64,000 bases of DNA from Kappaphycus alvarezii (taxonomy: Eukaryota > Rhodophyta > Florideophyceae > Gigartinales > Solieriaceae): NCBI GenBank assembly GCA_002205965.3, contig NADL03000053.1:124001-188000 (forward strand), given 5' to 3'. The notes under the pieces were generated by a model, which was not told the origin of the DNA, ran no database searches, and was given only the letters and a program-made list of their open reading frames with translations. Position 1 is the stretch's first letter; every line of letters begins with the position of its first letter. Below are positions 27,801 to 64,000 of the stretch, piece after piece. Both the position numbers and the translations under genes were made by a program.

Positions 27801-28944
27801 CAGCGGCACAGCAGCTCAAGGTTCCGGTAGCAAAGTTTGGTTCCCATAAATGCCAAATATACATATGAAGGCCCGTTTGAAGGCCCGTTTTAAGATTAAA
27901 GACCTACATATACTGGATATGTAACTCAGTGACCACAATTTATTTGTTAAACACGGACTTCATTAGAGAATAAAAATATCGAAAACCATTGACAGTCTTC
28001 ATAAGCTATTTTAGTAGGACTAAAAAAGCTCCCTCTTTGCGTTTCAGTTGCCCAAAAGAAACACAAGGTTAAAAATGCACTTACCTCTGAAAAAGAAAGA
28101 ACATTTTCAGTACGCTTGTGTGAAGAGTTTACCTTCGGTATTTTTTTTATTATGTTGACGACAATATCCAAACATAAATGAAAAAGAAATAGTTTACCTT
28201 TCAGTTGTCAGGAAAAAGAGAAATTGTAAAATATCATAAATCATCAATTAGTAATTATAGAAGAAGTCTCCTTTGGAGAATAAATAGGAATAAGTAGAGA
28301 TTTTATGACTAAAGAACTTCATGGATAAAAACTTGCGTGCAAAAGATGCAAAGAAATCGGTTTTTTAGAGTAAAAGGATTAAAAGACAAAATATTACCCA
28401 GCACATGACCAATTAAGGCACAATAAAGTATGTCATTAGTACTTCCTATGGTTTTAAATGTCCATATTTCCAGACTTGGTAGTAATCTTTACATATAAAG
28501 GAGAGTAATCTGTAATGACAGAAATATAGTAACAAAAGGATACTTTTTTGCAACTATTTTACGCTACTTACAAGTCTTTTGTTGTATGTATTGGTTGAGA
28601 TTCCTCGAGGAAAACTTGTTTTGTGAATTTAGGGAAATATACACAAAAATTGAGGCAGTTTCATATCTAGCGGTGAAATTGCTGACAAGTTTCTAGGCCA
28701 GTACTGTAACATTATTATCTTCAAAGAATAAAGAAGTTCACTTTTTTTAGCCGAAAGTATTTTTAAAATAAAGAAACGAGTCGAAAAAGCAATAAGTGAC
28801 CTCAAACCCTTAAAAGTCTTTGAAATTGTATTTCTAGGTGATAATTTTGTGCTTTTGGAAGAAATAGACACCTCTACTTATGATTGAGTGTAAGAATGTA
28901 TATAACTGTCTTCTTTCTTCTTCTTCTGTATCATACAGCTAGCA
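18861..28944. other. AT-rich stretch, essentially gene-free
   Basis: Base composition changes abruptly at the LINE-A edge to strongly AT-rich and stays so to about 40.7 kb. No conserved protein family, rRNA, tRNA or organelle gene is visible. The one small frame with ordinary residue balance is 21,395-21,553 (53 residues, MRKEEYYYSLNELLFGDL...). It resumes in the same frame beyond its stop to about 21,650 and may be a decayed gene I cannot name. A short tandem duplication of GAAGGCCCGTTT lies near 27,868. Confidence 0.5.
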
Positions 28945-29110
28945 TCATTCCAAACGATGCATATGAAACCTCGCGCGAATGCTATCCTTCTTAACCAACT
29001 TTTGCAGAGCTTGGATTTCCCAACTGATGATACGTCCGTGGGTCCCTATTATTTTCATTTGGTGCAGATAGGGTATGAGGAGGAGTAAAGAATAAATTTT
29101 GAGTATCCCT
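28945..29110 (-). mobile_element. LINE fragment (RT thumb region) in the AT-rich island
   Basis: A minus-strand frame ends WEIQALQKLVKKDSIRARFH followed by MHRL. The ARFHMHRL box is identical to the one in both LINE-A copies (KVDDPRARFHMHRL at about 14,400; RVQDPRARFHMHRL at about 52,740), and the spacing of the preceding Leu/Lys heptad also fits. Only this short piece is recognisable. It shows that the AT-rich island contains the same LINE lineage, heavily shifted to AT. Confidence 0.5.
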
Positions 29111-30288
29111 AACTGCAAGATTTTTCTAAAGGTTATGAGCATTCCATAGGCTACTACTATCTGTTCCACTCGTAAGAAGTTTTAATTCAAAATATTGTCA
29201 GGCATGAATATGCTCCCTTCAAAGAGATTAGTTCAAGAATTTTCTCCCTAAAAGCAAGATAATCTTCCCGAAACTTAACTTTTCTGATTGAGATACAGAA
29301 AACATAAGAATGCCGGGGACTCTTTTTCTGGTGCACAAGGAGCGGAATCATCTATGATTGTATAAATTAATTATCCGTTCATTCAAAATTATATTTGTAC
29401 AAAAGAAGGTTTATGGGAAGAAGAATAATTATGAAGCACCTCTACGGTCGGTAAAAATTAAAAATTATGACTCGTTACACCGAAACGCTTCGAAAATCAT
29501 GCCGAAGACTTAATTTTGCCTCAATCGGGTTTCGGGTAAAATATTTAGTTTTAATCGTAATTATCGCCTTTGGAAAAGTCTCTGTGATTTGTAAAGAAGA
29601 GCAAGACAGGGAACATATAAAATCTTTTGGGAAGCCGTACGGGACTATTAATTTGTGGGAATATACATTTAGGGAAACAAACTCCCACAAAGCGAGGCTC
29701 GGTCAAGTGTTTTCCTTTTATTGGTTTGGTACTCCTGAAGAATACGTCGTCGGAAATATAAGTTCAAGTTCTAATTGACGGCCGTCATCAAAAAATAATT
29801 CCAAGCCAACATGATAGAAACAGCAATTAGAATCCCTGTGAGTACAGAAAGCAAGCTACACTCCCTTAAAATCAAAAGATGGGCGAAAAGTTTATCATCT
29901 CAGTTAATTTCATCCTGTTTCGACGATGAGTGGCTCGTTTCGTAGTATCAACTTTTCCATACTTAGATAACTGAGAAAACATAAGAATGTACTATATTTC
30001 AAGTTCCTTTGGTCTCCACCAGATTTAGAATCGTTCCCTTTAATCAGTGTAGTTTTATCTTTGCTATTCTGATAATGGCTTCACATAACTCGATGACTAT
30101 TCCTAAGGAAAATACCAGAAACGTCAAAACTCCTCTAGATCTCCTAAAAACCTAAAAGATACCCCGAAATTTCAATTTCCGGCCCTTAGTAGTCGTCCAC
30201 TCTACTATTCCTCTCTTAGTCCCTCTTAGGAGACAATAAATTCCATCGAACCCTCCTTCTTATTGACAGCATACCCACGTCCACCAAG
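29111..30288. other. AT-rich stretch without a recognisable gene
   Basis: An open frame at 29,467-29,778 (103 residues, with one hydrophobic segment VKYLVLIVIIAFGKVSVI) has no family I know and could be chance. Nothing else is supported. Confidence 0.4.
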
Positions 30289-33200
30289 TTGTTGTTTACT
30301 TTGCTCCCCATTTTCCTTTGTGCCTATTTTTCTTGCCTATCCTGGTTTCTCTATTCCCCATGTCTTCACACGTCATCCATTCATCTTTTCTCATTAAATA
30401 GAGCTTTAAAATCACTAAAACGTTTTTACTCACGAGTGTCCTTGCGCAACGAAAATGAGCGTAATTTCGTCGATTCAACTCCTGACTACACATCTGACGC
30501 AATCACCGTAGGAAACCGTTTTTTGCTTCTTTCGCTAATACTTGAAACCTATATTCCTGTTTGGAAGTTAAATAACTCAAATGCCTATATTTACAGAAAA
30601 TTCAGTTCATTTTTCCAAAATTATAACAGTATTGAGGTTAGAAAACTCGACAACATTTCCGAGAATATTGCCTCCGTTATTTTCCATTGCCCAGAACTAG
30701 ACGCCTTTATCAAACAGATCAATTCATCATTTTCGAACTAATCAGTATTTTCAGCCCCTCTCTCACTATATCCCTCTCGTTCAACTGAAAACAGGAATGA
30801 TAGTCAAAAATGGACCGAAAAATGTCGCAGCGTTTCAGTGGGGCCTCTACGATGAAAAACGGCACTGAAAAACTATATTCCTTGGTTAATTAACATCAGT
30901 ACGCTGCTCAAGGTTTCCTCTTATCCCAGTAAATGAACATAAATTTACTTCATCTTTGGTTTAGAGATGATATTCTTGCTTGCTATCAAAACAACACAGG
31001 TCACTTTCCCATATTTCGGCACAGAAATATCTACAACAGAGAAGCTTTTCGATCCAATCTCACTTCAAAATCAATTCGACCCATTCCTTCGAAACTTACA
31101 CATTGAAGACCGCCTCATGTCATTCTCTTGCTTTCGGTGGCTCTAAAGAAGTTAACTTCGACTATTTTCAATGTGAGCCAGATAGGTCCCGCCATAGGTG
31201 AGTTGAACCAAAAATAAATTGCTGCGCGGATCATTCGGAGGATTCTCATGGCCGACGCACTTCCTCACGCGCGCAACAAACTATGAGGTGAAGTATTAAG
31301 ATCTACCCTCAAAACTGCAAGGTGCAATTTGAACTGAGGAAGAAACATGAATTGTACGCAATCGCCGCCCCAGTCTCATTGTATCATTCTCCTCATACCT
31401 AGATTCAGGGCGGGCCATGTACTCTCTATCACTTACTCAAACTATTTACTCAGGAAAAAACTCATCCAGTCTTAATCCACGTCCATCCGACTTGAATTAC
31501 TTCCCAAACCCCTTCACAATGCTGGAACTACGGCAAAATTCTTTTCCTGAACAAATCTCGTTACTCCCAAAATATCAAAAAATAGCCCAACGTCAGTTCC
31601 GTCATCTCCATGACCAGGATTTCCATCCCTCCACCCAAAATATATGTGATTTCACAGCTATTACTCACCGTGTCAAGGCGACTGCTGAAACAAAACAAGA
31701 TCTTCAACAAAACCACCGATTTGTGCAAAAATTGTCAGCATCTCTCACCAAGGCCCCGAACATTCAAATTCTGTTCCCTGGTGAAATCTTCTTCAAATGG
31801 GAGATACATCTCCGTAAATCTTGATTCCCCTTCTCAAAAATACCTCGAGACCACCACTCCGCTTTGTTTACCTAAGTATTTTTTTCGGCAGCTCGTTTCC
31901 AACAAGAAGAATCAGTTGAAGACAGTAGATCCCTTTTTCTTCGATTTCTTCCATAATTTACATAGCCTATCCTGAAGCTTTTCAAACTACCCAAGGCTAC
32001 TTCTTCATAACGGCTTTCATTCAAGAAAACACTTCAGGGTGAGGTACAAAACTTGATATTTCAGGGTTTGAAAGAAGTAATTTTTCTAGGGCCAGCGAAA
32101 AATACCTCTAAAAACTGCGCAAATAATGTACCCCAAAAAGTCCATTAAATACCCAAAAACAGACACTCATATCGTTATTTGTCTTTGCATCAAAGCTATG
32201 AACGACAATGTGAAAGGTGAATAGTCTTATACCCTCACTGCTTGTCTTCTGTACCCTTCTTGGTCCCTTTGCGTCAATAATTCCCTCATAAATCAGCCAA
32301 AAACAAATGAGCGCCTTATTATTTGCTACGGCAGACCCAAGGACATTTATCTCCTATTTATGCAATCAAAAAGACCTTATGCTCAACTTTTCTTTCTCTT
32401 CTTCCGTTAAACTTGAACCAGGCCAAGAGGTACTAGTTTATCGTGAAAATGCATATTAAATGGCGTTGACCCTAAAAACTTTCAATTATCGAAGAGAAGC
32501 AAGCTTTCGTCGATAAGTTTGGAACTGATACATATTTTTCAGTGTATTATCTTTGTCCAAACACAAGAAACCTGGGCGTCTTTTATTCGAGAGTGAAAAA
32601 ATCGCTGCAATCCTGTACTCATTTCAACAACCTTCATTAATACTTTAGATTCTCCGCGAAGTTTACTGTATACCTCCCGGGAACGCTCCATCCGAAATAT
32701 CCTGGCAGAAATATCCCAAATTTCTGGACGGCACATATACAAAAATACAAGGCCTCCTGTGACGCAAATACTGGACTACAATTTTGAATTCGGATCTTGC
32801 AAAGAACGCTAAGAATTTAAATGAACGATTCGTCCTGAACATCAAAACTGTCGAAAGAGGCTCACCTTTCTTCAAACCTCGATTACTCGAACAAGGTCAT
32901 TCTGACAAGGATAAAACCTAGTACTTTAAAATTGCACAAGATTGAGACAATATTCGACCTTGTCATCTCTTCACTCGCAAAAATTCAAAAATGATACATT
33001 CGGAGTAACGATATCAGCAAGGCTTACTTTCAGTCTCCGGTAGGTCTTTATAAATAAATAATTAAGATTCCCTTGAATCTGACTAAAAGATGAAAAGATT
33101 CCAAAAAATACTTAAGCCCTCGGACAATATCCGGGTGCAGGAGATCACTGGAATCTTAAAATGGCTGCAAAATTTGGCGAAGATCTTACAAATTTGACGT

Positions 33201-33960
33201 TCTTGAGTGAAATGGATCAGCTTTTCTCATTTAATTCTGATAGCATAATAGTACTGATATTTTCTACGTTGATGATATATTTATCTTTTTGAATGGCGTA
33301 TCCCTTAGCCTTTCACAGTGTGCTTGCGAAATTTAGTTCAAGAGATCTCCAGTTCGACAATATCACATTTGCTGGTGTTTGTATCTCTACCATGGCCAAT
33401 AATATCTTCCTCACCCAAAGCCCATACGTTTCTACGCATTCCCTCATTTCTCAAGGGTTTTCATTTCAGTATTACCTCTCTCCTCTTCTAAGACTTGCTT
33501 GACCATTAAAAAGCCCTCATATATTTTTTGATGTCTCCTTGGCCGCTCAGGTTGATGAATATAAATTTAGTTCAGAAATTTGTCAAATTTGAAGAAAAAT
33601 TGACACACGCCTTCAGGAAAAAACGATTACATCTCTACCGTTCTTCTCCTTTGATTTAGGCACTCTCAACGTGTGAATGCGTACTCAGAAGCAGCTTTCT
33701 CAAACAAATGTTACTTCAAATCTCAGCTAGAGATTATTATTCTCCTCATGGATACCAGAGACAATTTCTGTATACTCCATCTCTCAAGCAAAAAAAACAT
33801 CAAGTTATCCCCTTAGTGCTCTTGGCTGAAGCTCTCGCCTTCGCAGATATATTTCTTCCTTACACGTCGAATGGCTTTCCATCCATTTCATCTCCGAGTC
33901 ATTCCATTGATTATGTTTACGTTCCCGAATTTACTACTAGAATTTATAGCTAAATGCTCT
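30289..33960 (+). mobile_element. Ty1/copia LTR retrotransposon fossil (gag to RNase H), broken
   Basis: A plus-strand copia-type element in family order. A gag-like frame comes first (from 30,289). A protease-like FSSYLDSG lies near 31,395, and an integrase zinc region with CKNCQHLSPRP near 31,720. The RT follows, with a GHSDKDK box near 32,900, YVDDIFIF near 33,265 and an ITFAGV-type thumb, then RNase H with a SQLEIIILL-type box near 33,725. The wording of these boxes is that of fungal Ty1/copia elements. It is clearly broken, with well over ten breaks and AT-shifted codons, so it looks old. I could not find its terminal repeats. Confidence 0.75.
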
Positions 33961-36813
33961 TGTAATACCTAAATATGACTCAAGATAGACTTCTCGGCAC
34001 TCAAAGATTCGTAAGATCGCAATAGTATTTCCAATCTTGAGTTTCGTGCGCACAGCTGACAGCTCAGCTCACGCTTTCACCAAGGTAAATCGCTGTCCCT
34101 CTTTTGAATGCAATTGTTGAGAATCGCACTCGTCCACTTTAAATTAGACCATGGTTCATAAGTCAATCTCGACTCACTGCACCTCAAGAGTCTCACGGCT
34201 AGAACAACGGGGGATACTAATCATACTTTAGGTGACCTACTGTCCATTTGACTCCGATACAATAAGCTAATTACTGAAATAATGTGTTGGATGACATGAC
34301 CACCCACTCTTTACAAAGTCTCTAGTTAAAGGATTCAATTTCTTATTGTACTCGCCTTACAGGTAGCAATTCCTCTGTTAATCCTATCGGAGAAAAGTAT
34401 ACCTCCTATTGTAGTATATCTTTTTACATACTTCGCTAGGTATCAAAATTCAGATTTTACTCTGGGTCTCTGGCCCTCAATCCCCTACAGACCTCGTCCC
34501 GCCACTACTGTTCAATTTATTTTCCTCTTTGCTAGTCCACCTGAATCAAAAAAATGCCATGGTCCAGCGGAGTAGCGGCCTGAAAGAGCCATCAGTTGTA
34601 CAAAGTATGACCCAACCATTCAACTAAAAAAAATGTTTTAATTTATCCTGAAATGAGTCATTCCAACAATGCAAAGCTTTTTCCACATTCTTGTCGTCAA
34701 TTACATCAGCCACCACATTTTTTCCACTAGCAATATCTGGCCCGGCTTCAGTCCAGCAATTCTTCATAGCAACAATTCTTCATAGCAAACATAGGATTAT
34801 TTTGAAAATAGGATCTTGATAAAGCTACTGTGATGCGGCTAGAACTGCATAGTATCACACCTTATAATCAGAAAACCACAAAGGGCGGGCTAGTCACATT
34901 ATCCCCCCTTGTAATTACTAAAGCGAAAATAATATTTGGATGATTAGTTTAGCTACTCTCTATTTTTCTCGCTGTATCGCCAGGGATTTTCTCGACCATT
35001 TCTCAAAATGGGCACAATTATTCGCTATCATCAGCGTTCAGTCTTCCAAAAAGCAATTTTTCTTTTCTGTTAAGGAGTAAACTACATTAACGATCATTTC
35101 TCCTCATTTTGTGTGAAATAATGTTAATGCGCTGGGAAACAATACCCAGAACATTTTCCTAGTACTGCTTTTCACGTTTTCTGCTCTTAATAGGATCGAA
35201 GCTGAACTTGGCGGCACTTGCTAACCCTGCCTTTATTCTATCGCGCAAAATACTTTAGCTACCCGCAGTTAATGCATATATTGTCTGTCAAATTCCATTA
35301 CATGTTTAGTTTCAACTTTTAGATTACTGTTATCCATTCAATAATATTTTAAGGGATAAATGAGAGATCTATGGGCGTAAAAAGACGATTATTGCAAGCT
35401 CGAGAGGGCGAGTAGCTACAAACTTCCCTTACTGTAGGGTGACATACCACGAAAAACGCAGTAAACCCCTCCAGATAGCAATGTCTTGACTGACTAAAGC
35501 GATACAACTTGCGTCGCCTTCGAATAATGAACTTGAATGGCTAAGTCAGCCAATGAGTGGTATCTTTTGCCCTCCAGATCGAACAAAAACTTGCATTTCA
35601 CGATAACGATAGCAAAAATACTCCAAATAACCGATGGAGTCACCCATGAGCCCAAGATACCGCACAACTCTCCAGTGTCCTCTGAAAAAATCACCGGATT
35701 GAAAAATTCGGCACTTCAAGCAACCAAACTGCTTATGTCACTCCCCCATTATAGACAATCTCTGGAAGATCGGCTTCCAAGAAGTAAACGCGAGACATTT
35801 CGCCCACCTCTTTCACTACAATCGCTAAATACGTAGAAAACATAAACTAAGCAGTCATAAATTTCGAAATGTATACTTAAGCTGGTGACGTAACAATAAA
35901 AAATTAAAATATTAAGGGTGGCGAAAGATAAACTTCGAAGACAACGTGGGGAATTAGGTCGGTTTTTGTACAAGCAGGAAAACAATATCTTTCCCGTCAC
36001 CCCAGAATCTTGTCGTTTCCAACCCACTATCCTTGCCCCTCCCCTACTCTTTCTGATGGTCACAACATTAACGTACTTTTTTAAAAATCATGACACTGTT
36101 CCCAAAGAGTGTAATAAAAGCTTTGTTTCACTTTGAGACTATCTAAGTTTGGGCACAAGACAGAGACGGCAGTATAATCATCTCAAGTTTTCCTCTTATT
36201 GATTTATTCTGCTGTGCCCATCCGACAAAATCTAAAGCTCAACCTGAGGACAAGCCAACAGTCAGAAACCTACGTCCAGGTACAAAAAGCTATGAGTCAT
36301 GATTCACCCCGATAAGCATAGTGGAAATTGATAGAAGGATGTCACTAGAGCCATTCATATTCTAGTCGGAGCCAAGTAACAGGCAGGGAACGAAAAACTT
36401 TAAGGAACTAGACGCAGGAGTCATAATTAACGCTTTCTTTGTTTAGATCGAGCCGTTGTTCTAGATTAGGTAGCTACCGAAAAGGAGAAGCTCCTAAAGT
36501 TTTGCTACAAGAGAGTGACAGAGATTGCACTGAAAGATGAAAGGGTCAGGATGACGCAGCAAAGCGAGGAGTAGGCACAATAAAACAGTCCAGAAAAGAA
36601 AACCTTCGAGAGGAAGCAGAAAGAAGGCATCACGGTAAAATTTTTCTGCAGAGACGGAACGAGCAAAAAAAATTTGCAGCTGAGGAGGCGGAAAAGCTTT
36701 TTCTTTTATTTATTTATGACGAATATGTAGAGAGAGGGGCGTCACTGGACATTGATTTTACGCCGCCCAACTCCAAAACGGAAGGGGGAGGCACCGAACA
36801 ATGATGTTAGCCC
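33961..36813. other. AT-rich stretch without a recognisable gene
   Basis: Frames at 35,537-35,836 and 35,918-36,136 show no known domain. A short tandem duplication (CAATTCTTCATAGCAA) lies near 34,757. The last few hundred bases become purine-rich ahead of the MULE transposase and may contain its terminal inverted repeat, which I could not delimit. Confidence 0.4.
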
Positions 36814-39505: not shown

Positions 39506-40796
39506 GACAATACTCGTGGGCCTGTTATCGTTAAATGAATGTATTAGTCTCTTTGCTTGTAAAGTTCACCCTTTTGTTTGTGCCTTCTCAGTTTTGTCGT
39601 CCTTTCCTTTCATGTCCGTCGCCCAAGTTTTTGCGCAGTTTTCAAGGATTCGCTCTCCAAATACAAAAGTGATAGTTGTCGACATACGAGGCTATTATTT
39701 CACCCTAAATTCTGTTCATATATTTTTATTTATCCTTCAAAATTCACACTTACTGGTCTGTTGGCACGCAAATATCGCTTTATGCTACCGTCAACCCCAC
39801 CATATTTACAAAAGAATGAGTGCCACCCCCAAATAGTAAAACCTCAATAATTATTTTTAGTTTGTGCTCGAATCGGAGCTCTAGAATGTCACAATAGGTG
39901 AAAATGGTCTATGCTTCTTGTATAACTCTTTATTTGAGAGGATAAAATTTAAAATATGAAAACCATGACTCATTTTTTTCTGACAAAGAGACCAGGAAAT
40001 CACAAATCGAGCTTCACTCATATACCTGAGTCATTACCTTTAGCACTAAGCCTAAATAGTCTTCACCACTCAGTGAGTGTAGTGAACCCTCACATACAGG
40101 GTTACATCGGCCAGTTATCAGGATTATTCCGAGGTGATAAGAAGCCTGCTCAAACGCCTACTCATATTTTGAAAGTTGATACGTCTGTAGATCAACTTTC
40201 AAGTCCATTATGCGCCTCATGCAGGGTCGAAGACACACTGTAGGGGCAAGTATTTCTCAGTGTGTCTGGAGTCCTTCTGCAAAAATCCGGTACTCACCTC
40301 TGAGAATTCTTGGCCAAAACCAGAGTTCCTTGAGATTATGTACATACGAAGGGAGATTTTGCTGTACTGTCGTTATTGATATTATGCAACACTCACCACA
40401 ACAGCCAGTTCGCTTTGCTATGCAATAATCTCACTCGGACAGCTCGACACCCATTTATTAAGCCTCGTCTGCATTATAAAAAGGACAAGACCAGACAGTG
40501 GGACTATAACAGCCGCAGGTGGCACTGAATATTTCGAATTGGGTTTTATTGCCAATGATCAATGTAGGTGAGGTTGAGCTAGGGACCAAGGGGACGAGGC
40601 CTACTTTGCGTAGCCAACTTATCTATTTCAGTAAAAGAACCCCCACGAAACCGTCTTTGCGTAGCGATTGATATACCCATGACAACTGTCTTTGTTTAGG
40701 CCTTGATTTAGTTTACTATCTGTTTTATCTAGTGTAAAAGCTAGATGCGGCTCCACATAGAGTCCCGTTTCTTCTCACAATTATTTTGCTTGGAAG
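39506..40796. other. Stretch without a recognisable gene
   Basis: A hydrophobic frame at 39,498-39,836 is probably chance in AT-rich DNA. Base composition climbs back towards that of the flanks from about 40.5 kb. Nothing else can be named. Confidence 0.4.
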
Positions 40797-40818
40797 GTGA
40801 CATCGCACCACGCATGCG

Positions 40819-40885
40819 CGGTCCCGTTACCACGCTTTGCCCTGGTATTGCAAAGCCTCTAGGTTTGCGAATAATTTCGTCTCCC
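40819..40885. repeat. LTR-like repeat, downstream copy
   Basis: About 67 bases (ACCACGCTTTGCCCTGGTAT, then TGCAAAGCCTCTAGGTTTGCG and on) match 43,893-43,960 in the same orientation. The two flank the copia fossil about 3.07 kb apart. Similarity fades on both sides, so only part of each LTR is conserved. Confidence 0.7.
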
Positions 40886-50460: not shown

Positions 50461-53400
50461 ATCAACGATATCGCGGCCTTACGCCGCCAGCACAGACAGC
50501 CCCGGAAACACGGTGGCCAGAAGAACACGGTGGCCCCCACCAACGATAACCCCCGGCCCGTCAAGACGACCTCACAGCGGGACCTCCCGCCTTGGAGCCT
50601 ACAATTGCCGAGGCGGAGCGTTGACCTCCGCCCTCGCCCCCCGGCCCCGCCCAAGGCCGCCGCTTCCACCCCGCCGCCGTGTTTGCACCGGGGCCATCGG
50701 CAAACAGAAGTCCTCCCAGGTATCCACAGCCAAGGCCATCGCCCGCGTTGACCCTACAATGGTGTTCACAAGACCCGTGACCCCCGCCGGCGCCACCAAG
50801 CCCGCAACCCTGATGCCATTCCCGTCCCGCCCCTACTGTTTCCCCCGTGCCTACGCAGGCAATGGAGGAGGTGGCGCAGGCGGAACCTACGAACAAAGAA
50901 AAAGTTACCCCGCGCGTGCCCAGCAGGCCCCCAAACCTGCTGAGCCCTCGGGGCTTAATCATGCCATGGAGGAGGTGGTGCCAGCGGTTCCCCGCACAAG
51001 GACACCCCGACACAAGCAAAGCAAGCGGTTCCCCCGGCGGCGACCAGCGCTGAGGGACACTCATCATAACTCGTGCCATGGAGTCGCCGATCCCATCCGC
51101 AGCCTCCCCGTCATCTTTCCCTCTGCCGACCCCCTTGGATGTCCTACGCACGCCGTACCGTGAGGCGGACATCTTCCAGGACGTCCCCTCCGCATGTCTC
51201 CGCCAGTTCACCCTCCTCTTTATCAAGTTGGTCAAAGCCGCTGCTAATGCACGCGGTGACGCAGCTACACATCGCGCCTTTCTTCACCTCCATATGCTGC
51301 CCACCGCTGTCATGCGGCGCAGCCTTTGGGGTGAGGAAGGGTGGAGATCCGTCCAAGGTCAACGCTCCGCGCTCAGGGAACGGCTCCGGCGGGCCCACAC
51401 CGGCTCCCAATGGGGCGCCCTATGGGCTGATGCTGTCAACGCCCATCACCACCGGGCCGAGTGGATTATCGAACACTGCCCCAATGCTCGCACACCTGCT
51501 TCATCCGACAACGCCAAACGCTCCCGGAGCCGAAGCTCTCTGCGCTGACGCCCGCTACGGCAAGGCGATGCGGACCCTTCACAATGCCCCATGTGCCGAC
51601 GTTAACGCGCCTACCACCATCCAGCGTCTGCTTGACCTTCACCCGTCGCCGCCACAGCCCATCGCCCCGCTTCCCGAGGAAAGCCTCCCACCTCCTCCGC
51701 AACTCACTGAAGCCGCTGTGGCACAGTCCGCGCGTCGCATCCCGCGGGATACCACCGCGGGCCCGGACCGGACGCCCTCGAGGTGGTTCCACCTGCTCGT
51801 TAACACTGCTCTTAGCCCCGAGGCCGGTGTCACTGGCATCGGAGTTCTGACGAAGCTGGTCAACCGCATAGCAAAGGGAGACCTCCCCGATTCGGTTCTT
51901 CCCCTGCTCTCCGCAGCAACCCTCCTCCCCCTGCAGCCCAAGCCTGGGAAGATCCGTCCCATCGCGGTCGGCTCTGTCCTCCGGCGCCTGGTCACGAAGA
52001 CGCTGCTCCCGTCGGCTATTGACGACTCCCGTGCATTTCTGGCCCCCTTCCAAACTGCCAATGGCATCAAGGCAGGCATGGATGCGATCGTCCATGACGT
52101 TCGCACGATGTTGCGAAGGGTGTCGTCGGATCCAAACGTCGCCACCGTCCTCATTGATGCCCGGAACGCTTTCAACTGCGTCGATCGGCAAGCAATGCTC
52201 GACATGCTGCCAGCCCGTGCCCCACACTTGCCCGATTCGCAAACATGGTGTACGGTCGATCCCGACCACCGCTAATCGTCCCAAACCGGGAGAAGACGAT
52301 GCTTCTAGCGCCCAGGGAACCCAGCAAGGGGACCCTGCGAGTTGCTGTTGTTCTCGTTGACGATACAACCGCTCATCAGGCGGGTCGCCGACGAGGAGGG
52401 TATCATTTTAAATCAGTGGTACGCCGACGACGGTACAATCATGGGATCACTTGACGGCCTACGGCGAGCACTACGGTCCCTCGCGCTCTACGGTCCTTCA
52501 TTCGGTCTGTTTATCAACCCTCGCAAGACACGCATCTCCTGGCCGCACACTCCGCCAGCTGATCGCGCTGCTTTCCTGGCCGAGTTCCCGCTTGCAGAAT
52601 GCGCAGGCGATGGTTTCGAGCTCCTCGGGGCCCCGTTGGGTAACGCTGCTTTCACGAAAACATTCTTACGCAGCAAGATAGAGGGGTGCCGTCGCACCCT
52701 GGCGCTGCTGGAAAGGGTCCAAGACCCCAGGGCCCGCTTCCACATGCACCGCTTATGTGCATCCGCATGCCGGGTGCTTCACGCCTTTCGGCTTGCGGAC
52801 CCTCAGCATGCCGCGGAGCCTGCAAGGGAGTTCGACTCAGCAGCGAGCCGCTTACGCCACGCTCCATAAGGTCCCCCTCACCGACGACGCATGGGAACAA
52901 GCTTGTCTCCCCTCCGTCTCGGGGGCACGGGTTCTCAAGGATTGGCCCTGCACTGCACGCGGCTGTCGCCGCCAGCATTCTGGAAGCTGCCCCCGCCCGC
53001 CTACGCACCGCTGACTATGCAACACCCCGCTCCGTCGCCGTCCTTGGGAAACAGGCACGGGGTGACCGACATTCCTCGTCAACCAGGCACGCCGGCCCCT
53101 GCGCGATTTCGTCCGACAGATCCAAGATGACCCGTTTGCCACCGACCTAGGCCCCTTTGAACCCGCCTCCCTTGCCGCCATGCCCGTCAACCTGCAATCT
53201 CATCTAAATCGGGCGCAGCAAGAAGCCAGGGCAAAGGAGTTTTGGGAGGATGAACTATGGAAGAGAGTGCCACATCCTAGCTGCCACTCCGACACGTCCA
53301 CACGTCGCCGGATTCGAGGCTTGGCCTTCCGTAACACCGGTGCGGCGGCGTTCTTATGGGCCCACCCCACCACAGCGACGAAGGTGTCATCAGCACACTG

Positions 53401-54110
53401 GAGCATCATGCTGCGCAGGCACCTCGGTCTCCCAGTCTACACAGACTCGGTGCCATTGAAATGCCACCACTGCCAGCAGGACATGGATGTCCACGGTGAC
53501 CATGCCGCCGACCGCTGCGTCTCAGAGTTCGGGCGCATTCACCGCCACAACTCCGTTCGCAATGTGTTCGCGTGGCACGTGTTCCGCCGCCGGCCTTGAC
53601 TACGAGTTCGAAGCTGAGAATCTCCTCCCCGGGACGGACCAGGCCCGCTGACATTCTCCTCGTGCATCCCCCCGTGACACTGAAGCTGCCCTACCAGACC
53701 GACCCATTGCATGTGACGTCGCCGTCACGTCTCCGTTCAAGCAGACCTCCATCACCAAAGCGACGCAAGTCGCCGGTGGGGCTGCCGCCCTCATGCACCA
53801 TCGCAAGATCCAGGACCTACAGCACAAGCTGTCAAGGCGCCTGGTCCCCCCTCTCTGCCCTCCCGGGACCCAGGTTTCCGATTCCAACCTCTGGTCTTCG
53901 ACTCCCTCGGTGCCCCTTCTCCGGATACCGCATTATTTATCGAAGAGTTTGTGCCACGTGTAGCCACGAAATGCGACACCTGGACGCTACGATTCGCACA
54001 CGCATCTACCAGCGTATCAGTTGCACTTTGTGGCGTCGGTGGCTATGGCCATCATATCGCGGGCCCCACTGCACGTGACCGATGTGGTCCATCCAGTTAG
54101 CTCGTAACTG
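50461..54110 (+). mobile_element. LINE-A, plus-strand copy, 5'-truncated
   Basis: A GC-rich element of about 3.6 kb that starts abruptly inside the copia integrase. It contains the end of the Pro-rich first region (to about 51,070), then ORF2 with RT and nuclease, and ends with CATCCAGTTAGCTC near 54,090-54,104, matching the 3' end of the minus copy. Nothing of the copia gag side is found beyond 54,110, so either that flank was lost or the junction is not a simple insertion. A GTAC repeat follows at 54,175. Confidence 0.85.
51078..54078 (+). pseudogene. LINE-A ORF2: reverse transcriptase and restriction-like nuclease
   Basis: The ATG at 51,078 opens MESPIPSAASPSSFPLPTPL, followed by DVLRTPYREADIFQDV. 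After a frame change come LCADARYGKAMRTLHNAP and TAGPDRTPSRWFHLLV. The RT blocks are KPGKIRPIAVGSVLRRLVTK near 51,940, VLIDARNAFNCVDRQAML near 52,150, GTQQGDPAS near 52,317 and QWYADDGTIMG (YADD codons 52,420-52,431). The thumb has RVQDPRARFHMHRLCASAC. The C-terminal part has RIRGLAFRNTGAAAFLWAHP, CHHCQQDMDVHGDHAADRC, RIHRHNSVRN and TRPADILLVHPP. All motif residues are readable, so the fold is recognisable throughout. About six one-base frame changes (near 51,540, 52,240, 52,340, 52,860, 53,120 and 53,600) and loss of the Asp-Val-Thr frame make it inactive as read. Confidence 0.85.
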
Positions 54111-56099: not shown

Positions 56100-56470
56100 A
56101 TAGGACAAGGCCCGATATCAAAGCAACAGGAGCGACAGGTGACATGAACTATTTCGATATTACGTTGGTCAACTAAACTTCAACCCTCTCAATGGTCTTA
56201 ACGCGGCCATGTCAGACAATCACTGAGGGTACCAAGTTTCATTTCTGCATCGCCCGAGAGGGCCAGGCTCCTCCCCATTACAATCTCCACTATGAGAGGA
56301 ATGGAATCAGGAAGCTTTGTCCGTTGTCACGAAGCTGGTAAGAGCTGTCACAAATAGAGCCATGGAGCATTTCTCAAGGGCAAGACCAATTCTTTTGCGA
56401 CGGTGCGCCGCACTAGTGGTCCCCTCTAACGCAGCCTGTTTGTTGTCTGGCCTCCCACGTCTTTCTATAT
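56100..56470 (+). mobile_element. LINE-B 3' end with nuclease box
   Basis: The plus strand gives ARPDIKATGATGDMNYFDIT, then LVN, so the Pro-Asp and Asp-Ile-Thr nuclease boxes are present. After several shifts the SNAACLLSGL line ends near 56,465. No tail was found. Confidence 0.6.
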
Positions 56471-56740
56471 AGAATGATGACGTCTGCTATCTTCTTTTTA
56501 CACAACGCCTTCCTCACTAACACCTGTGGTTCTCAGCCTTCCGAGCTCTCACAGTAAACACGCCTCCTATTCTCAGCCATATACCGTAACATATCTGGTT
56601 CAAATTATATCTGTGCGTTACAGTGCCATGTGCGACTTTTCGGCTAAGATCTAGCCGGATGCCGCACGCCGGCCACAAGCAATGGGTGCGAGATACGTAG
56701 ACATCGCTCTGGACGACTGCATAACAATACTGAGGCACTG

Positions 56741-57080
56741 TCAAGTGCAAAGAATCGCACCGTCGGCAGTGAGGTATCGGTGAGCTATACGAGGGAAGAA
56801 TTCGTCCAGCAGTTGGGTGGTCTCTAGAGCGCAGGCACGCAGGGAGTCGAAGGCTATAGGGCAGAAATCGAAACCAGAATCGCTGTGTGGGCCGTCGGAA
56901 GGGGCGTCAGTCGATGTCTGAGATTGCATTCCAGGTCCTTGAGCTTATCCCACCAGGCGGCACGGCCCAACCAGCAGCTTGGGTGACCTTTGTTGTAGCG
57001 GTAGCCTTGAATAGCGAGACTACTCTAATAACATCGGCGGTGGAGCGGGGGCCGGTCATTGGCGGTAGTATATGTAATTG
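56741..57080 (-). mobile_element. LINE-A-like fragment (end of nuclease domain)
   Basis: On the minus strand, ADVIRVVSLFKATATTKVTQ, then AAG (57,060-57,000), parallels DVTIVSPFKDNVRSRATREM, then GGA, of LINE-A. The segment GFDFCPIAFDSLRACALETT, then LLDEFFPRIAHRY (56,890-56,770), parallels NFEFQPLAFDSLGSPSPATF, then LFIEGLLPRIAEK. It is a short and divergent piece. Confidence 0.6.
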
Positions 57081-57090
57081 GACCTTGTCA

Positions 57091-57118
57091 CAGTACATGT
57101 ACTGTACTGTACTGTAAT
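57091..57118. repeat. GTAC palindromic repeat
   Basis: ACATGTACTGTACTGTACTG at the upstream edge of the LINE-A-like fragment. Confidence 0.75.
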
Positions 57119-57399
57119 ATTTATCAATCAAGTACTTGAAAGAAATGGTCAGCTGTTTCCAGTGCTACATAAAGCAGTCGCGGATTGGCAGACGATATCT
57201 AACGAACATTCTGTTTATTGTACAACCAAAGTGATTTTAAAATAAATATCACCACACGTCTAAAGTGGTACAATACGCAGAATACTCATTAGGCACAGTT
57301 GATTGCTTACTACAGTACAATTGCTCGGCTCGATCAACTTCCCAAATCAGGAGCAAAAAGTCTTGCAATCGTTGTGCCGTGACGTTTGCTCCAGACAAA

Positions 57400-57848
57400 A
57401 CGGGCACTGGTATGGTTCGCCACAAGATCTACTCGAACAGGAGAATAAGGACTTTAAACCCGCTCACCTCGCTCAACGGAGCAGAACGGCGAAACACAGA
57501 AAATACGAGTCATCGCGTCTTCCGCCAAAGTATGATGGTCCCCGTCCCCATCTCTACCTCGGAGGATGGCACCCGGACGCTCACGCGTTGCTAACCGACT
57601 TTGCACGCAACGTCGCTACGAGGGCAAGGGAGACCTAAGCAAAGGTCAAACAAGTCCTAACGCAACGTCATGCTGCAGCGGCAGCGATGTCCAATGCGGC
57701 GTGCCTGTCGGCTGGCCTCTGGCCAGTTTTCTAGCGTTTTGACGGCTTCCGCAAATCCTTACAATCTAAGCTTTTGCCCATATCACGACATCTCTCAGGG
57801 AGCAGCAGACTTCAATTTTCATGGATTAAGAACGCCCCCAATTTCCCC
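57400..57848 (+). mobile_element. LINE-B 3' end with 3' UTR and tail
   Basis: Plus-strand frames read RRIRTLNPLTSLNGAERRNT, then VPIPISTSEDGTR and, shifted, GWHPDAHALLTDFARNVATR, the MLQRQRCPMRRACRLA line (out of frame) and a stop at 57,732. The 3' UTR (57,722-57,848) matches 10,553-10,686. Upstream, 57,120-57,400 shows nothing recognisable. Confidence 0.7.
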
Positions 57849-58542
57849 TGTATCAACGCCAATTAGCTGTCACAGGTGGTCTTCCATAGAGCGATGTCCG
57901 TCCTGTCCGAGTTCGGCGCACGCTGCTGACATGGCATATCTGGTTAGCTCCGAACTGTAATGCAAATTAAGTTGGTGAATCAAATGGATAAGGTAATACT
58001 CCATGAGTACATTACTTACAGTATCATACTTTACAGAGTGTGGCTTATTTTTGCGTCCCGCCAACCGATGCATTACAGCATTTTGGGCTCGCTGGCTTGG
58101 CCCCACGGAGGGGTTCGATATAGTACATATTGCTGCAGTGCAAAAGGCGATATAGTGCACCTAAAAGCTCGCCAAAGTTTGCGCCACCTACACGAAGAAC
58201 CATTCATACCTTTGCTGTAATGCTCTAGAATCCCTAGGATACCTTCTAAGGACGGGAACGAATGCTGGAATGGGTTCCGATTATGACACGTGTGAAATGT
58301 AATAGTACCGCGAGGATATAATGCATATGCTGTACAATGATTGTTTCTCCGTCGGTTGCAGTATGATCCATGAAACTGTATTCCTCCGTAACCCTTTCTC
58401 GTGACAGTTCTTAGCCTGCGCCACGTCGCGATTTTGTTATTACAGAGTAGGCGCTCCGTTCATGGCTGTTGTACGCACTGACCGTCTGGTATTCAGCAAG
58501 GGCTTTGCTGATGAGGCCTGCAAATGGAGGGGGAGTAATCAT
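57849..58542. other. Stretch without a recognisable gene; possible promoter of the membrane-protein gene
   Basis: No conserved frame is seen. It precedes the plus-strand membrane-protein gene and must contain its promoter if that gene is live, but I see no diagnostic element. Confidence 0.4.
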
Positions 58543-59993
58543 GTCAACTCTCTTTATAGAAATCCACTCCCTACTCTCACACCTTTATTCGAAACTCGGC
58601 CGCTGTAACGTTGCCGAGGTCACCCTTGGCAAACGTTTCTCCCACGTTTCCATCCGCAAACTCGTTTTCGCTACCCCCATCCCTTCTGCATGCGTTATGA
58701 TCCGCGACGGTCACCTCACGTACGAGTTCAGCGGGAACAATTGGCTTTTCGCAGAGTTTGAGAGCACCATTGGAAATGCCTTGGTCATCGCCGTCCTCTC
58801 CACCATCCTCTCTTATCAGGCTACCCCATAGTCTTCGATCTTCTCCTCTGGCCTCAAGGAGAAGAAACTCGCCCCAATCAACCTTTTTCAGGTTTTACTC
58901 CTGGTCCGTCGTTCTAGTCCTGTCTCCGTCGTTAACAGCCTCCTTCGCCGCGATTGGCTTACCGGCATTTACTTCAAAGGCTACCTTCCCGAGCGCTCTG
59001 AAATATCCCGGGACATACGGCCCATTCGCTACAGCATTACGGTCCGTTTGATAATCCTGCTCATAGCCGCTCCGTTAATCAATATCGTTGCTGTGGTGCT
59101 CACATTTGAAAACTCGATCGATGTTACATTTGCGCAAGCAAACTTTGGAGGTGCCGTGTTGGGTATAGTGTCAAACGACAATTCATCAGTCACGAGAATC
59201 AAAAACTTGACGGAACGCTGTGAGGCCTATCCCGATTCTCGCCCAGCAGGGAGATAATATTGAGGCCCATTTCTCCAGTTGCTTTAGTCTCAAGCCTCCT
59301 GCTGACCGAATGAATTCGCCGGAGCGGCTGACGAAACGCTTTGGTTTATGTGAGCATGTCAACTGGAGAGATATTGTTGTTGGATTTGAGGTAGGCAGTT
59401 TCATGTTGGAGTTCCGAAAGTCGCCACTCTGGATACTAAATCGGTAACAGCTGGGTTGCGGGCTGTTGTCGAGGTATCGAGGCGGAAAGAATGCTTGACA
59501 GCGCAGTAAGAGAAATTTCTGATTTATGTGAAGAAAGACCAGATCCGGACGATATTGAGGACAGGCGTGACGAAACTGCCGCAAGCATCGGGCAAGGTTT
59601 CATTGCTCTGAGAAGGTTTCCATGTCTATTTAATCAAGATGACATGGAGCGCTTCGGGAAATTCTCCTAAACATAGGGCAGCAAACAACTTTGGTGGATT
59701 CAGAGCGGCTTTTAATCGTTAATGGGAGCAGAAACCCAACAGGCTTTGAGGAATTCGACCTTTCCGACTTTATCGACGGCACATCAGAGGTGCTTTTGCA
59801 GAGGCGAAGGCGAACAGTGAGCTTGATTTTCATGGCTGGTCTTGCCGCAGTGTCGATAATTCTGAGGTTGTTCTTAGCGGTTATTCTTAATAATGACGTG
59901 CATGACGGGATCGAGCGGCTGATCAAGGAGCGGCTGGGAGTCAAGAATTGTCAATCGCTTCTGAAACATGGTAACTTCCGCGTCCAGTACTGA
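58543..59993 (+). CDS. Three-pass membrane protein of an unrecognised family, copy 1
   Basis: I know no name for this family. Read on the plus strand, the protein of about 480 residues has three hydrophobic segments. The first is GNALVIAVLSTILSYQA near 58,775. The second is VRLIILLIAAPLINIVAVVL near 59,045, followed by TFAQANFGGAVLGIVSN. The third, near the end, is VSLIFMAGLAAVSIILRLFL followed by AVILNNDVHDGIERLI. Between the second and third are Cys-containing and acidic stretches (MLDSAVREISDLCEERPDPD). Residue-level similarity to the minus-strand gene at 60,093-61,600 runs the whole length. The ATG at 58,543 is chosen because it precedes the conserved part; 58,469 is in the same frame. 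The frame shifts about three times (near 58,826, 59,230 and 59,650), by single bases or short unrecognised introns. Ends converge with the paralogue about 100 bases apart. Confidence 0.6.
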
Positions 59994-60092
59994 TTGTGCA
60001 GGTACAGCAATAAATTTTCACTACCACAATGTTTCGATGAGCGGCAGCGCACGAGCATGACTGCCTGACAGGCACGGCGGTTTGAAACTGTT

Positions 60093-61600
60093 CTATTTAC
60101 ATGAATCCCTATCCACTGAAAATCCCCGCGAGGTACACACAATCACACGAATCTTCGTCAGCCATCTTTTGACCCTCATAAACCTTTGTTTGTAATCTAT
60201 CACATCCTCTAGTGAGAGCATAGAGTCGTACGGAGGTACATTCAGAGTATCCTTCAGCAATAGCTCAATGCCCACGTGCAGGTCATTGTTAGTGAATCCC
60301 TCACAATGATGCGGATGACTAGAGAGATTGCCACGACGATGAGAAGCACGAGAAAGCTGACAAGACTTTCCGTCGTGTAAAGAAGAGATGGCCCTCTATG
60401 TTTGCTGCGGTTGCCATTGTTGATATCCACGACTTCAAAACGGTCTGTCTCGACAAAAGACACATTGAGAGACGCCTCTAGTAGTGCATCGAAACAAGGG
60501 ACTCATTGGAGAATGTACATTGAACGCTGCTTCCTACTGACCAATTTTGATCATCCGAGGCCGCGAATTCCAAGAGCCTATGTCACCCTCGCCAGTTGTG
60601 TCACTGTTTTGATCACGAGAATTATTTCTGCACGTATCGGACAGAAACTTGACGCTGTTATTGATAAGGCGCTCTCCTTCCACTTGCCTCATGACATTCC
60701 TTAACCGAAATCCGCCGTCGCTCGTCAGTACCTCTCCGTACAATACTGCATAACCGTGATTCTACTACTCACAAGATCCAATCTAAAGCTATTGGTGGGT
60801 GCATTTTCATCGGAATCATTCCTCGAAACTCTTAAAACAGTAGTACTTGAGTCTGGAGGTTCAGAGTGTTCGATGTGGTGGAAAACAAATTGTCCAAGCC
60901 AGTATTGCTGGTAATGGTGATGATAGCGTCGGCACAAAAAAAAAAACTTGGCATCAGCTGTATCTGTGTTCCGAAGCTTGGTGGAAACGCGACGGCAAAT
61001 CTTGCCATCAAAATCACTCGCCACCAACACATCATCCGCCGAAACTCCGACAGCGACGCCTCCAAAGGCGACGTCGGCAAATGTCAAACTGGAATCGACC
61101 TCGGAGGTGAGGATAATGGCAAGCAAATTTGCAACCGGAGCTGCAGCCAAAAAGACGCCGAATTTCAACAAGACGCTCAAGCGAGTGAACTTGGTAGACC
61201 TGTCCGACGATGCATTGCAGGCCTCGCGTGGGTTGCAGCGGGAAAAGTAGTTTGTGCAACCGAGGGAGGAAAGTATGGTACGAGGGGTGGAATCCTCAGC
61301 AATGAGAAGGATGGAAATGTCGGAAGCGAGTGTAGTGCCTTTGTGTTTGCAGCCGACGAGAATGTCAAAGGTGATGCCTGCGAGTTGATATGCGAGGATT
61401 GTGGCGAGAATGGCGGCGAGGATCTGGAGGATGGCTTGGTTGTTGGGTTGCCATGTTCGGAGTGGGTCGCGGACACTTTCGTATGTGATGGAGCCGTTTT
61501 CGATCATGGTTGGGGAAGAGGGGGAGGTGATGGTGGGAATGCGGGGAGCGCTGTGGCACAGTGATGAGGTGGAGGGGGGGGGTTGAGGAGAGTTTGACAT
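60093..61600 (-). CDS. Three-pass membrane protein of an unrecognised family, copy 2
   Basis: This is the paralogue of 58,543-59,993 on the opposite strand. From the ATG at 61,600 an open frame of about 220 good codons has a Pro/Ser-rich start, then IENGSITYESVRDPLRTW and segment one, ILQILAAILATILAYQLAGI, followed by TFDILVG. Segment two is FGVFLAAAPVANLLAIILT, followed by SLTFADVAFGGVAVGVSADD. The frame is lost at the 12-A run at 60,939-60,950 and regained as LINNSVKFLSDTCRNNSRDQ near 60,640, which aligns with LDSAVREISDLCEERPDPDD. Segment three is SFLVLLIVVAISLVIRIIV near 60,360, then HVGIELLLKDTLNVPPYDSM and a stop at 60,093. Topology and length match the sister copy. The role is unknown; a surface or organelle membrane protein is a guess from topology only. 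Confidence 0.65.
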
Positions 61601-61910
61601 TAAAGACGAGGTTGAGCGGTGACGTTTGAGTGGAGCGGTTGGTGAGAGGAGGAGGTTGGTTGAGGGGAGGTTGATGGTGTGGTTGGTGCATAGCGCGCTT
61701 GGTGTGGAGACGCCGGGGAATGAGGTGGGTCTGTGAAATCATTTGGCTTGCCTTATACACGAGTAGTTGAAGGGGTTTTCACAGGGATGGCCGAAAGAGG
61801 CTTGGTAATTCGCAGAGGTTTTTTTTTTATGTCGAGTTTAGGAAGGAGAGTCTCGTGACTCTTCAAGGGGATTCTTGGCTATAAACCAGCCTTTTACAAA
61901 CAGAAATTAA

Positions 61911-61934
61911 GTACTGTACAGTACAGTACTGTAA
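61911..61934. repeat. GTAC palindromic repeat
   Basis: TACTGTACAGTACAGTACTG, self-complementary, upstream of the minus-strand membrane-protein gene. Confidence 0.8.
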
Positions 61935-62372
61935 CTCTCTTTCACCTTTTTATATTCCAACACATTGCTGCTCCCCAGCGTGTGCTATGGTACTAAAAAG
62001 CATGTATTGGACAACATCCTTTACAAAACCAAGTACAGTATTGTACAGTATTCTACTCTTCAACACAGATCTTTCTCCATTCCTCCAAAAGCACGCCACA
62101 CACAACCCAGCCCACCTGCACATCCACCAAATCCCTCACCCCCGCAGCCGCAAACCAAACCATCCCAACCCACAGCACTCCCCATAATCCACACCATATC
62201 CACCCCGCAACCACCCTCACCCCTCGACACACTATACAACCCCCCCATTCACACCACGCCCGAGTAAACAACTCACCACAACCCAAAACCCAAAACACAG
62301 CCCAAAGCAACGATTCTCAAGCCCACCATCCCACGCTCCACAAATTCGGCAGGCGCCTTTGCACGAAACTCG

Positions 62373-62437
62373 ACTGTACTGCCAACGTACTGTACAGTGC
62401 TGTACTGTACAGGACACAGTACAGTACTGTACTGTAT
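62373..62437. repeat. GTAC palindromic repeat cluster
   Basis: Three to four TACTGTACAG units are separated by a few bases. This is the largest cluster in the window. Confidence 0.8.
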
Positions 62438-63630
62438 GCCAAAGGTAGAGTATGTCGCCATGCGTGCCCAGACAAGCTGAGGCATGCATGCATGCCGAAA
62501 TCACTAGACCTGGTCGACCTTTGCAAATCAGGCGCATGAGACGCGGGGATATTTTGCGGTTTGCACGGTGTAATTTGGGGCCACCGTGGTAAGTCGGGCG
62601 CCGCGGATTGCAATTCCATTGGGCGGATTCCAGGTTTGCAACTGTATAGGGAAATTGGGTATGCCGGATGTTGGTGTGGACGTGAACGTGTTTTTGTCGC
62701 TTTGGGCTTCGGGGGGGGTTGCAGTTGGTTTACTGTAAGGTTGGTGGGGTTGTATCGTAGTGGATTGGTGTTGCGCTGTCTGTTTCTGTGGCGTCGGAAT
62801 GCTACTGTATTATATCTACGGTTCGCATGAACTACTGTACTGTGCAAGTGTCATTTGTTCAAACTGGCCCACTATTCGTCCAACACTTGGCTCTAACCAC
62901 ATGTTCCACGTCGGCCACGTACAGGGGGGAGAAATTGGGGTGCTTCACAATGCCGTGCCGGACAGAATCCTCATAGCAATGGACGACTGCACGACACTTA
63001 TCCGCTGTTACCTCCGCCCATGAATCACACCCCGTCGAAATGCCAAATTCTTGCTTATTTTCATGTATGCAAGATGCGGTCGCTTGTAACTACGCCGCTG
63101 CAAGTGCGTTGCACGGCACAAGTCGTATCAGGGTAACAAAAGAGCTCCCCGTGCAGCGCACGCTCAATGCCGTCGAAAGTGTCGTGACGGCAGCCTACGC
63201 ATTTCATAAATTTGGCAACCCGTAAGCCAATTGCGCTCAAAACGTACAGCCATCGTTGCCGCCTGGGCAGCCGGGAGGGTGCGTGGGGGGGCGAGGAGGG
63301 TGCACCTGTACGTCCGCGACCCGGAATTCCGGGATCTGCTGCGGGGAGTGGCTTGTCGAACTGGCGCTCCAGTTGAGCAGCTTTGCTTGATGTGGTTTGC
63401 TGGGGCGCGGCCTAGGGAATTGCGCTCGACGAGGGTTGGGCAACCGTCGGCGGACTGGTCGTCCAGGTTGGCCTTCGGATGGGTGCGGTGTAAGAACTGG
63501 AGCGGTAACGAGTCTGAGAAAAGTGGTAGTCACACAGGTCGGCAGAGCGTGATGGCCTGGTCGGCATTGGAAACTACGGTGGCCGTGGAGGGCTGCGCCG
63601 AGGGAGAGGCTACTGTGGGGTATGACGAAA

Positions 63631-63702
63631 GGAGAAAAATTGGGGTGTTTTGATGATTGAAAAATAGGTTAGCCTATGTTCCAGAGCGCATCAACTAATT
63701 GG
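63631..63702 (-). repeat. LINE-B-type 3' tail, minus orientation, shared with 10,466-10,532
   Basis: ATGATTGAAAAATAGGTTAG, then CCTATGTTCCA and GCATCAA-TAATTGG, occur at both places in the same orientation. Here they are preceded by AAATTGGGGTGTTTT, the reverse complement of the common tail. Confidence 0.7.
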
Positions 63703-64000
63703 CACAAGTGGTCGGCATGGAGGAGCCAAAAGGACGAAAGGTAGTGCTGCGAATGCGACGCAGGTTGCCAGGGGCGCTGCCGTGCGTCGGGTCGGAATAG
63801 GTGCCCCTTAGGGCTGGCTTCTTGCTGCACCCTATCAAGCAGGGTTTTGGTTTTGATAGGTGAGCCAGTGAGACGTTCAGGGTCGAGAGGACTGAGGCCG
63901 AGCTGGGGAGAGTGGCCGGGAACGTTGGTCAGGGATACTACCAGTGGCCATGGCGTCTGCCCAAGCAGGAAGCGTTGATTCCTGAAGCGTTGATTCCTGA

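What the first reader, a model, noticed from the sequence alone, without database searches (positions are those of the whole stretch)
58543..61600. Convergent pair of paralogous three-pass membrane proteins of an unrecognised family
Two genes, tail to tail with only about 100 bases between, encode proteins that match along their whole length. They share three membrane segments at the same places, the FAxAxFGG(A/V)xxGVS block after the second and the (N/D)xxHxGIExL(I/L) block after the third. I know no described family with this layout. An inverted tandem pair suggests local duplication and perhaps a larger lineage-specific family. It is the best candidate here for something undescribed from the host itself.
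Basis: partly seen in the sequence, partly recalled or inferred. Interest (0 to 1): 0.7.

Follow-up and report, generated by a model that had tools for sequence, protein, structure and literature searches.

The report
Red-algal three-pass membrane protein family
Two neighbouring genes belong to an undescribed family of about ten membrane proteins in a red seaweed, probably with a sugar-decorated domain outside the cell; the family is real and kept by selection, but what it does is untested.

Summary
Gene 1 (58697-59993, +) and gene 2 (61507-60093, -) lie tail to tail, 99 bases apart, with three membrane segments and both motif blocks at matching places (E 3.9e-11 in a 336 Mb search). The setting was misread: the host is a red alga, not a fungus. 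The family has ten distinct loci here, three with intact single-frame genes of 462-472 codons. Four allelic pairs give dN/dS 0.16-0.26, so the family is maintained; the window pair gives 0.5. Pfam, NCBIfam, PDB, viral and prokaryotic collections gave no relative; other red algae could not be searched. The pair is not a recent local duplication: its two genes belong to two old subfamilies (p-AU 1e-4). Both window genes are interrupted in this assembly, but an identical copy of an intact member is interrupted too, by four indels and no substitution, so many breaks are probably assembly errors. Most likely: secretory-pathway proteins, N-terminus out, with a glycosylated ectodomain holding up to two disulfides between segments 2 and 3 and a conserved cytosolic tail. 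A recognition or adhesion role is inference only. A genuine but modest orphan family.

The parts
58697..59993 (+). gene 1 (subfamily B), three-pass membrane protein, reading frame interrupted
   Evidence: frameshift-aware alignment to intact paralogue C762_241: score 344, 133 of 406 residues identical, 5 events; stop codon 59991-59993
58757..58822 (+). gene 1 membrane segment 1
   Evidence: hydropathy peak 1.50, weak
59048..59104 (+). gene 1 membrane segment 2
   Evidence: hydropathy peak 2.83
59129..59179 (+). gene 1 FAQANFGGAVLGIVSND block, start of ectodomain
59219..59625 (+). gene 1 ectodomain part holding the four family cysteines (codons at 59219, 59280, 59527, 59623)
   Evidence: columns
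59832..59888 (+). gene 1 membrane segment 3
   Evidence: hydropathy peak 2.48
59889..59942 (+). gene 1 conserved tail block NNDVHDGIERLIKERLGV
   Evidence: tail block mean pairwise identity 41.9% over 10 loci
60093..61507 (-). gene 2 (subfamily A), three-pass membrane protein, reading frame interrupted
   Evidence: frameshift-aware alignment to intact paralogue C762_238: score 400, 140 of 428 residues identical, 6 events; terminal frame 60093-60395
61379..61435 (-). gene 2 membrane segment 1
   Evidence: hydropathy peak 2.04
61106..61162 (-). gene 2 membrane segment 2
   Evidence: hydropathy peak 2.16
61034..61081 (-). gene 2 FADVAFGGVAVGVSAD block, start of ectodomain
60517..60997 (-). gene 2 ectodomain part holding the four family cysteines (codons at 60997, 60936, 60632, 60519)
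   Evidence: columns
60305..60361 (-). gene 2 membrane segment 3
   Evidence: hydropathy peak 3.01
60237..60290 (-). gene 2 conserved tail block NNDLHVGIELLLKDTLNV

Best explanation
The pair are two old paralogues of a ten-locus family of single-frame proteins of about 465 residues in a red alga, which enter the secretory pathway. Predicted topology: short N-terminus outside, segment 1, basic cytosolic loop of about 65 residues, segment 2, an extracytoplasmic domain of about 230 residues with up to two disulfides and N-glycans, segment 3, and a cytosolic tail with the conserved NND(V/I)xxGIE block. Family membership and purifying selection are shown by sequence; the topology is inferred from sequence statistics (I put it near 0.75). 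The functional step, an ectodomain that binds a ligand, a neighbouring cell or a wall component while the conserved tail engages a cytosolic partner, is inference without a direct test, and the confidence below is for the whole statement.
For: Three intact members of 462, 472 and 467 codons share the layout. N-glycosylation sequons summed over 10 loci: ectodomain 40 against 19.2 expected, 0 of 500 shuffles reaching 40; N-terminal tail 4 against 1.6 (25 of 500); loop 1 3 against 3.1; conserved tail block 0 against 1.6; rest of tail 1 against 1.0. Cysteines 174 and 194 are both present in 9 of 10 loci and both absent in 1; cysteines 272 and 317 are both present in 7 of 10, both absent in 1 and single in 2, the two single rows lying in frame-disturbed stretches. 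K+R within 15 residues: 0-2 before and 1-4 after segment 1, 3-6 before and 0-2 after segment 2, which puts loop 1 in the cytosol. Selection between alleles: dN/dS 0.19, 0.16, 0.26, 0.20 for four pairs, Fisher p 1.6e-6 to 1.5e-4. Tail block and segments 1 and 2 are the best conserved parts, 38-42% mean pairwise identity, against 21.8% in the ectodomain.
Against: K+R before segment 3 is 2-5 and after it 0-2 in the 10 loci, against the positive-inside rule for this topology. In the three allelic pairs with one intact member the ectodomain changes no faster than the rest (20 of 691 against 20 of 708 residues), so no sign of an arms race; the other six pairs of that call show more ectodomain change (33 to 68 differing residues of 219-235), but their rows are frame-disturbed there. 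Seven of the 10 rows behind the sequon and cysteine counts are read across frame breaks. No ligand-binding or signalling domain was found. The structure prediction of the window protein was uninformative (mean pLDDT 36.3).
Confidence: 0.45

Rival explanations
1. Accessory or structural subunits of a secretory-pathway complex (transport, or building and sulfating of cell-wall galactans) rather than receptors.
For: Polytopic, probably glycosylated, under purifying selection, and without faster ectodomain change in the three allelic pairs with one intact member. That red seaweeds invest heavily in sulfated wall galactans is background (PMC8307928, passages seen).
Against: No catalytic or transporter domain over cut-off in Pfam or NCBIfam and none in PDB; only three membrane segments.
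Confidence: 0.25
2. The window copies are decayed relics (pseudogenes) of a family that works elsewhere in the genome. This does not exclude the best explanation for the family.
For: Five and six events in the window copies, 8 and 11 in their second copies on C76; dN/dS about 0.5 in both, weaker constraint than in the four pairs with dN/dS 0.16-0.26.
Against: C592 has 0 substitutions in 1398 bases against intact C509_1052 but 4 indels, so the assembly makes such indels. Between window and C76, substitutions are much fewer in the genes (3.2%, 5.4%) than in the outer flanks (8.8%, 11.9%), whereas indels are only somewhat fewer (11.6 and 15.5 per kb against 16.5 and 19.4; 25.2 in the short spacer). 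Synonymous excess is still there (p 0.036, 0.006).
Confidence: 0.3
3. Envelope-like gene of a mobile element or virus that spread through the genome.
For: The window holds two reverse-transcriptase elements, and several family loci carry similar short dispersed repeats in their flanks.
Against: Within the 1.5 kb flanks compared, divergent loci share only stretches of up to 257 bases at 68-93% identity; no relative confirmed in IMG/VR; nine of ten loci recur at matching places on a second contig.
Confidence: 0.04

Closest known systems
Nothing over a curated cut-off in Pfam-A or NCBIfam, nothing in PDB
   Same: best Pfam scores are below cut-off: PSDC E 0.0044 for one C-terminal fragment, Caa3_CtaG E 0.016 for one window fragment; best NCBIfam E 0.021; best PDB E 1.3 with a profile
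   Different: no match spans the three-segment layout
Taxon-restricted multicopy surface proteins in general (recalled, not tested)
   Same: several diverged copies, clustered loci, a probably glycosylated and cysteine-bonded outer domain
   Different: three passes with the outer domain between segments 2 and 3; no excess of ectodomain change in the three allelic pairs with one intact member

Membership tests
Caa3_CtaG (PF09678) | whole-protein score over the curated cut-off 27.7 | tested here: not met
   15.0 bits, E 0.016 for one gene 1 fragment
PSDC (PF12588) | whole-protein score over the curated cut-off 23.4 | tested here: not met
   17.6 bits, E 0.0044 for one C-terminal fragment of C827_531
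the new three-pass family | three membrane segments at about 28-48, 115-138, 373-396 | tested here: met
   three intact members and both window genes, segment 1 of gene 1 weak
the new three-pass family | tail block NND(V/I)xxGIE after segment 3 | tested here: met
   N402, G407, E409 in 10 of 10 loci; block in both window genes
the new three-pass family | paired ectodomain cysteines | tested here: met
   all four columns are Cys in both window genes
the new three-pass family | a working single open frame in the window copies | tested here: inconclusive
   frames interrupted, many breaks probably assembly indels
family restricted to red algae | present in other red algae, absent elsewhere | not testable with these tools
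   only viral and prokaryotic collections were scanned, no relative confirmed; no other red alga is held

The most novel reading that the evidence does not exclude
Subfamilies A and B are the two chains of one surface receptor peculiar to red algae: three gene clusters (window, C762, C53 309-377 kb) each hold at least one A and one B member, kept together since before the clusters were duplicated.
Probability: 0.1. Interest if true: 0.6.

Novelty: new member of a known kind. Interest (0 to 1): 0.34.

Why it matters
The ancestor of red algae lost about a quarter of its gene inventory (PMC6811547, start of abstract seen in the listing), and which proteins they use at the cell surface is little known (recalled). 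About ten loci of an unnamed, selected, probably glycosylated three-pass family are a concrete candidate set for tests of recognition or wall building in what is probably a farmed seaweed. The case also warns that frame breaks in this assembly should not be read as pseudogenes without a check.

Tried and rejected
Fungal host: rejected. Origin of the pair by local duplication of one into the other: rejected. Known family: none. Mobile unit: flanks of divergent loci share only short repeats. Structure of a 260-residue window reading: mean pLDDT 36.3, so no fold search was run. Pairing of A and B as evidence of partnership: six genes fall into three mixed pairs in 6 of 15 possible pairings (my count, no call), so it is only suggestive. 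A weak hit on C137 (E 3.75) was dropped from the family count. Literature: sought such a family (7 and 2 papers listed, titles and abstract starts seen; none is about it by title or abstract start, and only PMC12115072 was searched further, passages). sought the genome paper; none of the listed papers was it (0 papers). The library lacks most subscription journals and all preprints. PMC10817344 (passages) says a K. alvarezii assembly without published annotation exists; no passage seen gave its size, so the match to about 336 Mb is recalled.

Full report
What is there. Gene 1 runs 58697-59993 on the + strand and gene 2 61507-60093 on the - strand, 99 bases apart. Both carry three hydrophobic segments at the same residues, the FGG block after segment 2 and the NNDxHxGIE block after segment 3. 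Segment 1 of gene 1 is weak and a few borderline stretches appear in both ectodomains at the low threshold used there; the three intact relatives show only the three segments at a stricter one. The similarity is real: gene 2's open frame finds gene 1 with E 3.9e-11 in the whole genome and a gene 1 frame finds gene 2 with E 1.6e-6, although the two are only 22% identical.

Host. The window is part of a 336.0 Mb assembly of 884 contigs. It does not look fungal: no Chitin_synth_2 match, while 4 of 14 control genomes ring (a six-frame search blind to introns). There are 22 matches to chlorophyll-binding LHC proteins; for one of them the second-best PDB chain is of entries 7y5e and 7y7a (that these are from a red alga is recalled). 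The assembly holds 17 matches to the phycobilisome linker family. The OAAH lectin domain PF17882 has 36 matches; PMC11766507 (passages seen) reports it from Kappaphycus, Eucheuma and Solieria. I infer a red alga of the Solieriaceae, perhaps Kappaphycus alvarezii, whose assembly I recall as near 336 Mb. Single-exon genes are common in red seaweeds (64% in Asparagopsis, 88% in Chondrus; PMC12115072, passages seen), as in the intact members here.

Family. Four protein searches together give ten distinct loci; the tool calls its counts lower bounds, and one weak hit on C137 (E 3.75) is left out. Nine of the ten are seen on a second contig as well, probably the other haplotype: window gene 1 and gene 2 (C76, collinear with window 56339-63360 apart from an insertion); C53 at 309, 337 and 377 kb (C827 at 556, 531 and 498 kb, inverted order, 86-89% identical); C762 at 238 and 241 kb (C701); C509 at 1052 kb (C714, and an identical copy on C592) and 1069 kb (C714). 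C53 at 293 kb was seen once. Six of the ten lie within about 195 kb of C53. Three members are single intact frames of 462, 472 and 467 codons. The 17 other copies examined have at least one break each.

Broken or badly assembled? C592 against C509_1052 shows 0 substitutions in 1398 bases but 4 indels that break the frame, which is what assembly error looks like. In the window pair against C76, substitutions are 3.2% and 5.4% in the genes against 8.8% and 11.9% in the outer flanks and 8.3% in the spacer; indels are 11.6 and 15.5 per kb in the genes against 16.5, 19.4 and 25.2; 35 of 36 gene indels are not multiples of three. Substitutions are thus cut by more than half in the genes, indels by about a quarter. 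dN/dS is 0.51 and 0.50 for the window genes (synonymous excess p 0.036 and 0.006). For comparison: 0.19 and 0.16 (C701/C762), 0.26 and 0.20 (C714/C509), 0.21-0.32 in five comparisons within the C53/C827 309-type group, and 0.59 for C827_498 against C53_377. So the family is maintained by selection; the window genes and the 377 kb gene show weaker constraint, and whether the window genes are intact in the plant cannot be settled from this assembly.

Topology. Sequons are enriched in the ectodomain (40 against 19.2 expected, 0 of 500 shuffles as high), less clearly in the N-terminal tail (4 against 1.6, 25 of 500), and not in loop 1 or the tail. Cysteines 174/194 come and go together in 10 of 10 loci (9 both, 1 neither). 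Cysteines 272/317 do so in 8 of 10 (7 both, 1 neither), the two single rows lying where the frame is disturbed. Loop 1 is basic at both ends. Against this topology, basic residues precede segment 3.

Evolution of the pair. The tree used 12 of the 20 rows: the ten loci and the two C76 copies. Gene 2 groups with C762_238 and C827_498 (support 98/97), gene 1 with the C53 309-type genes (84/86) and then C762_241 (92/93). Holding the two window genes and their C76 copies as one clade costs 54.8 log-likelihood units, p-AU 9.65e-05. Two of nine inner forks are drawn open (under 80), and C509_1069 and C509_1052 sit on long branches. The two subfamilies are therefore older than the window pair as such. 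Three clusters each hold both kinds, which hints at partnership but is not statistically telling.

Comparison with the known. Nothing over a cut-off in Pfam or NCBIfam, nothing better than E 1.3 in PDB with a three-sequence profile, no relative confirmed among 62 pattern matches in IMG/VR or 40 in the prokaryotic genome collection. These two scans reach relatives through short conserved patterns and could miss distant ones. Other red algae, the obvious place for relatives, could not be searched.

Verdict. A genuine, unnamed, multi-copy three-pass membrane protein family of a red alga.

Noticed in passing
window 13026-17441 (-) and 51054-54078 (+): Two reverse-transcriptase elements in opposite orientation; RVT_1 scores below cut-off (E 5e-06 and 0.0072), spread over several frames.
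   Followed up: partly
window 40682-40877 (+): U2 spliceosomal RNA gene, 58.6 bits, model positions 1-192 of 192.
   Followed up: no
window 20001-36000: Long stretch of low G+C (0.31-0.40 in 2 kb steps) between flanks near 0.45-0.5.
   Followed up: no
window 57099-62436: Short GTAC-rich palindromic repeats such as GTACTGTACAGTACAGTACTGTA, 7 copies of one family in 57000-64000.
   Followed up: no
window 56717-56728 against C76: About 4.4 kb present on C76 and absent here, in otherwise collinear sequence.
   Followed up: no
G000 C592:2306035-2307433: Copy of C509_1052 with 0 substitutions and 4 indels in 1398 bases: evidence of indel errors in this assembly.
   Followed up: yes
G000 contigs C625 and C786: All 36 listed OAAH lectin domain (PF17882) matches lie on these two contigs.
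   Followed up: no
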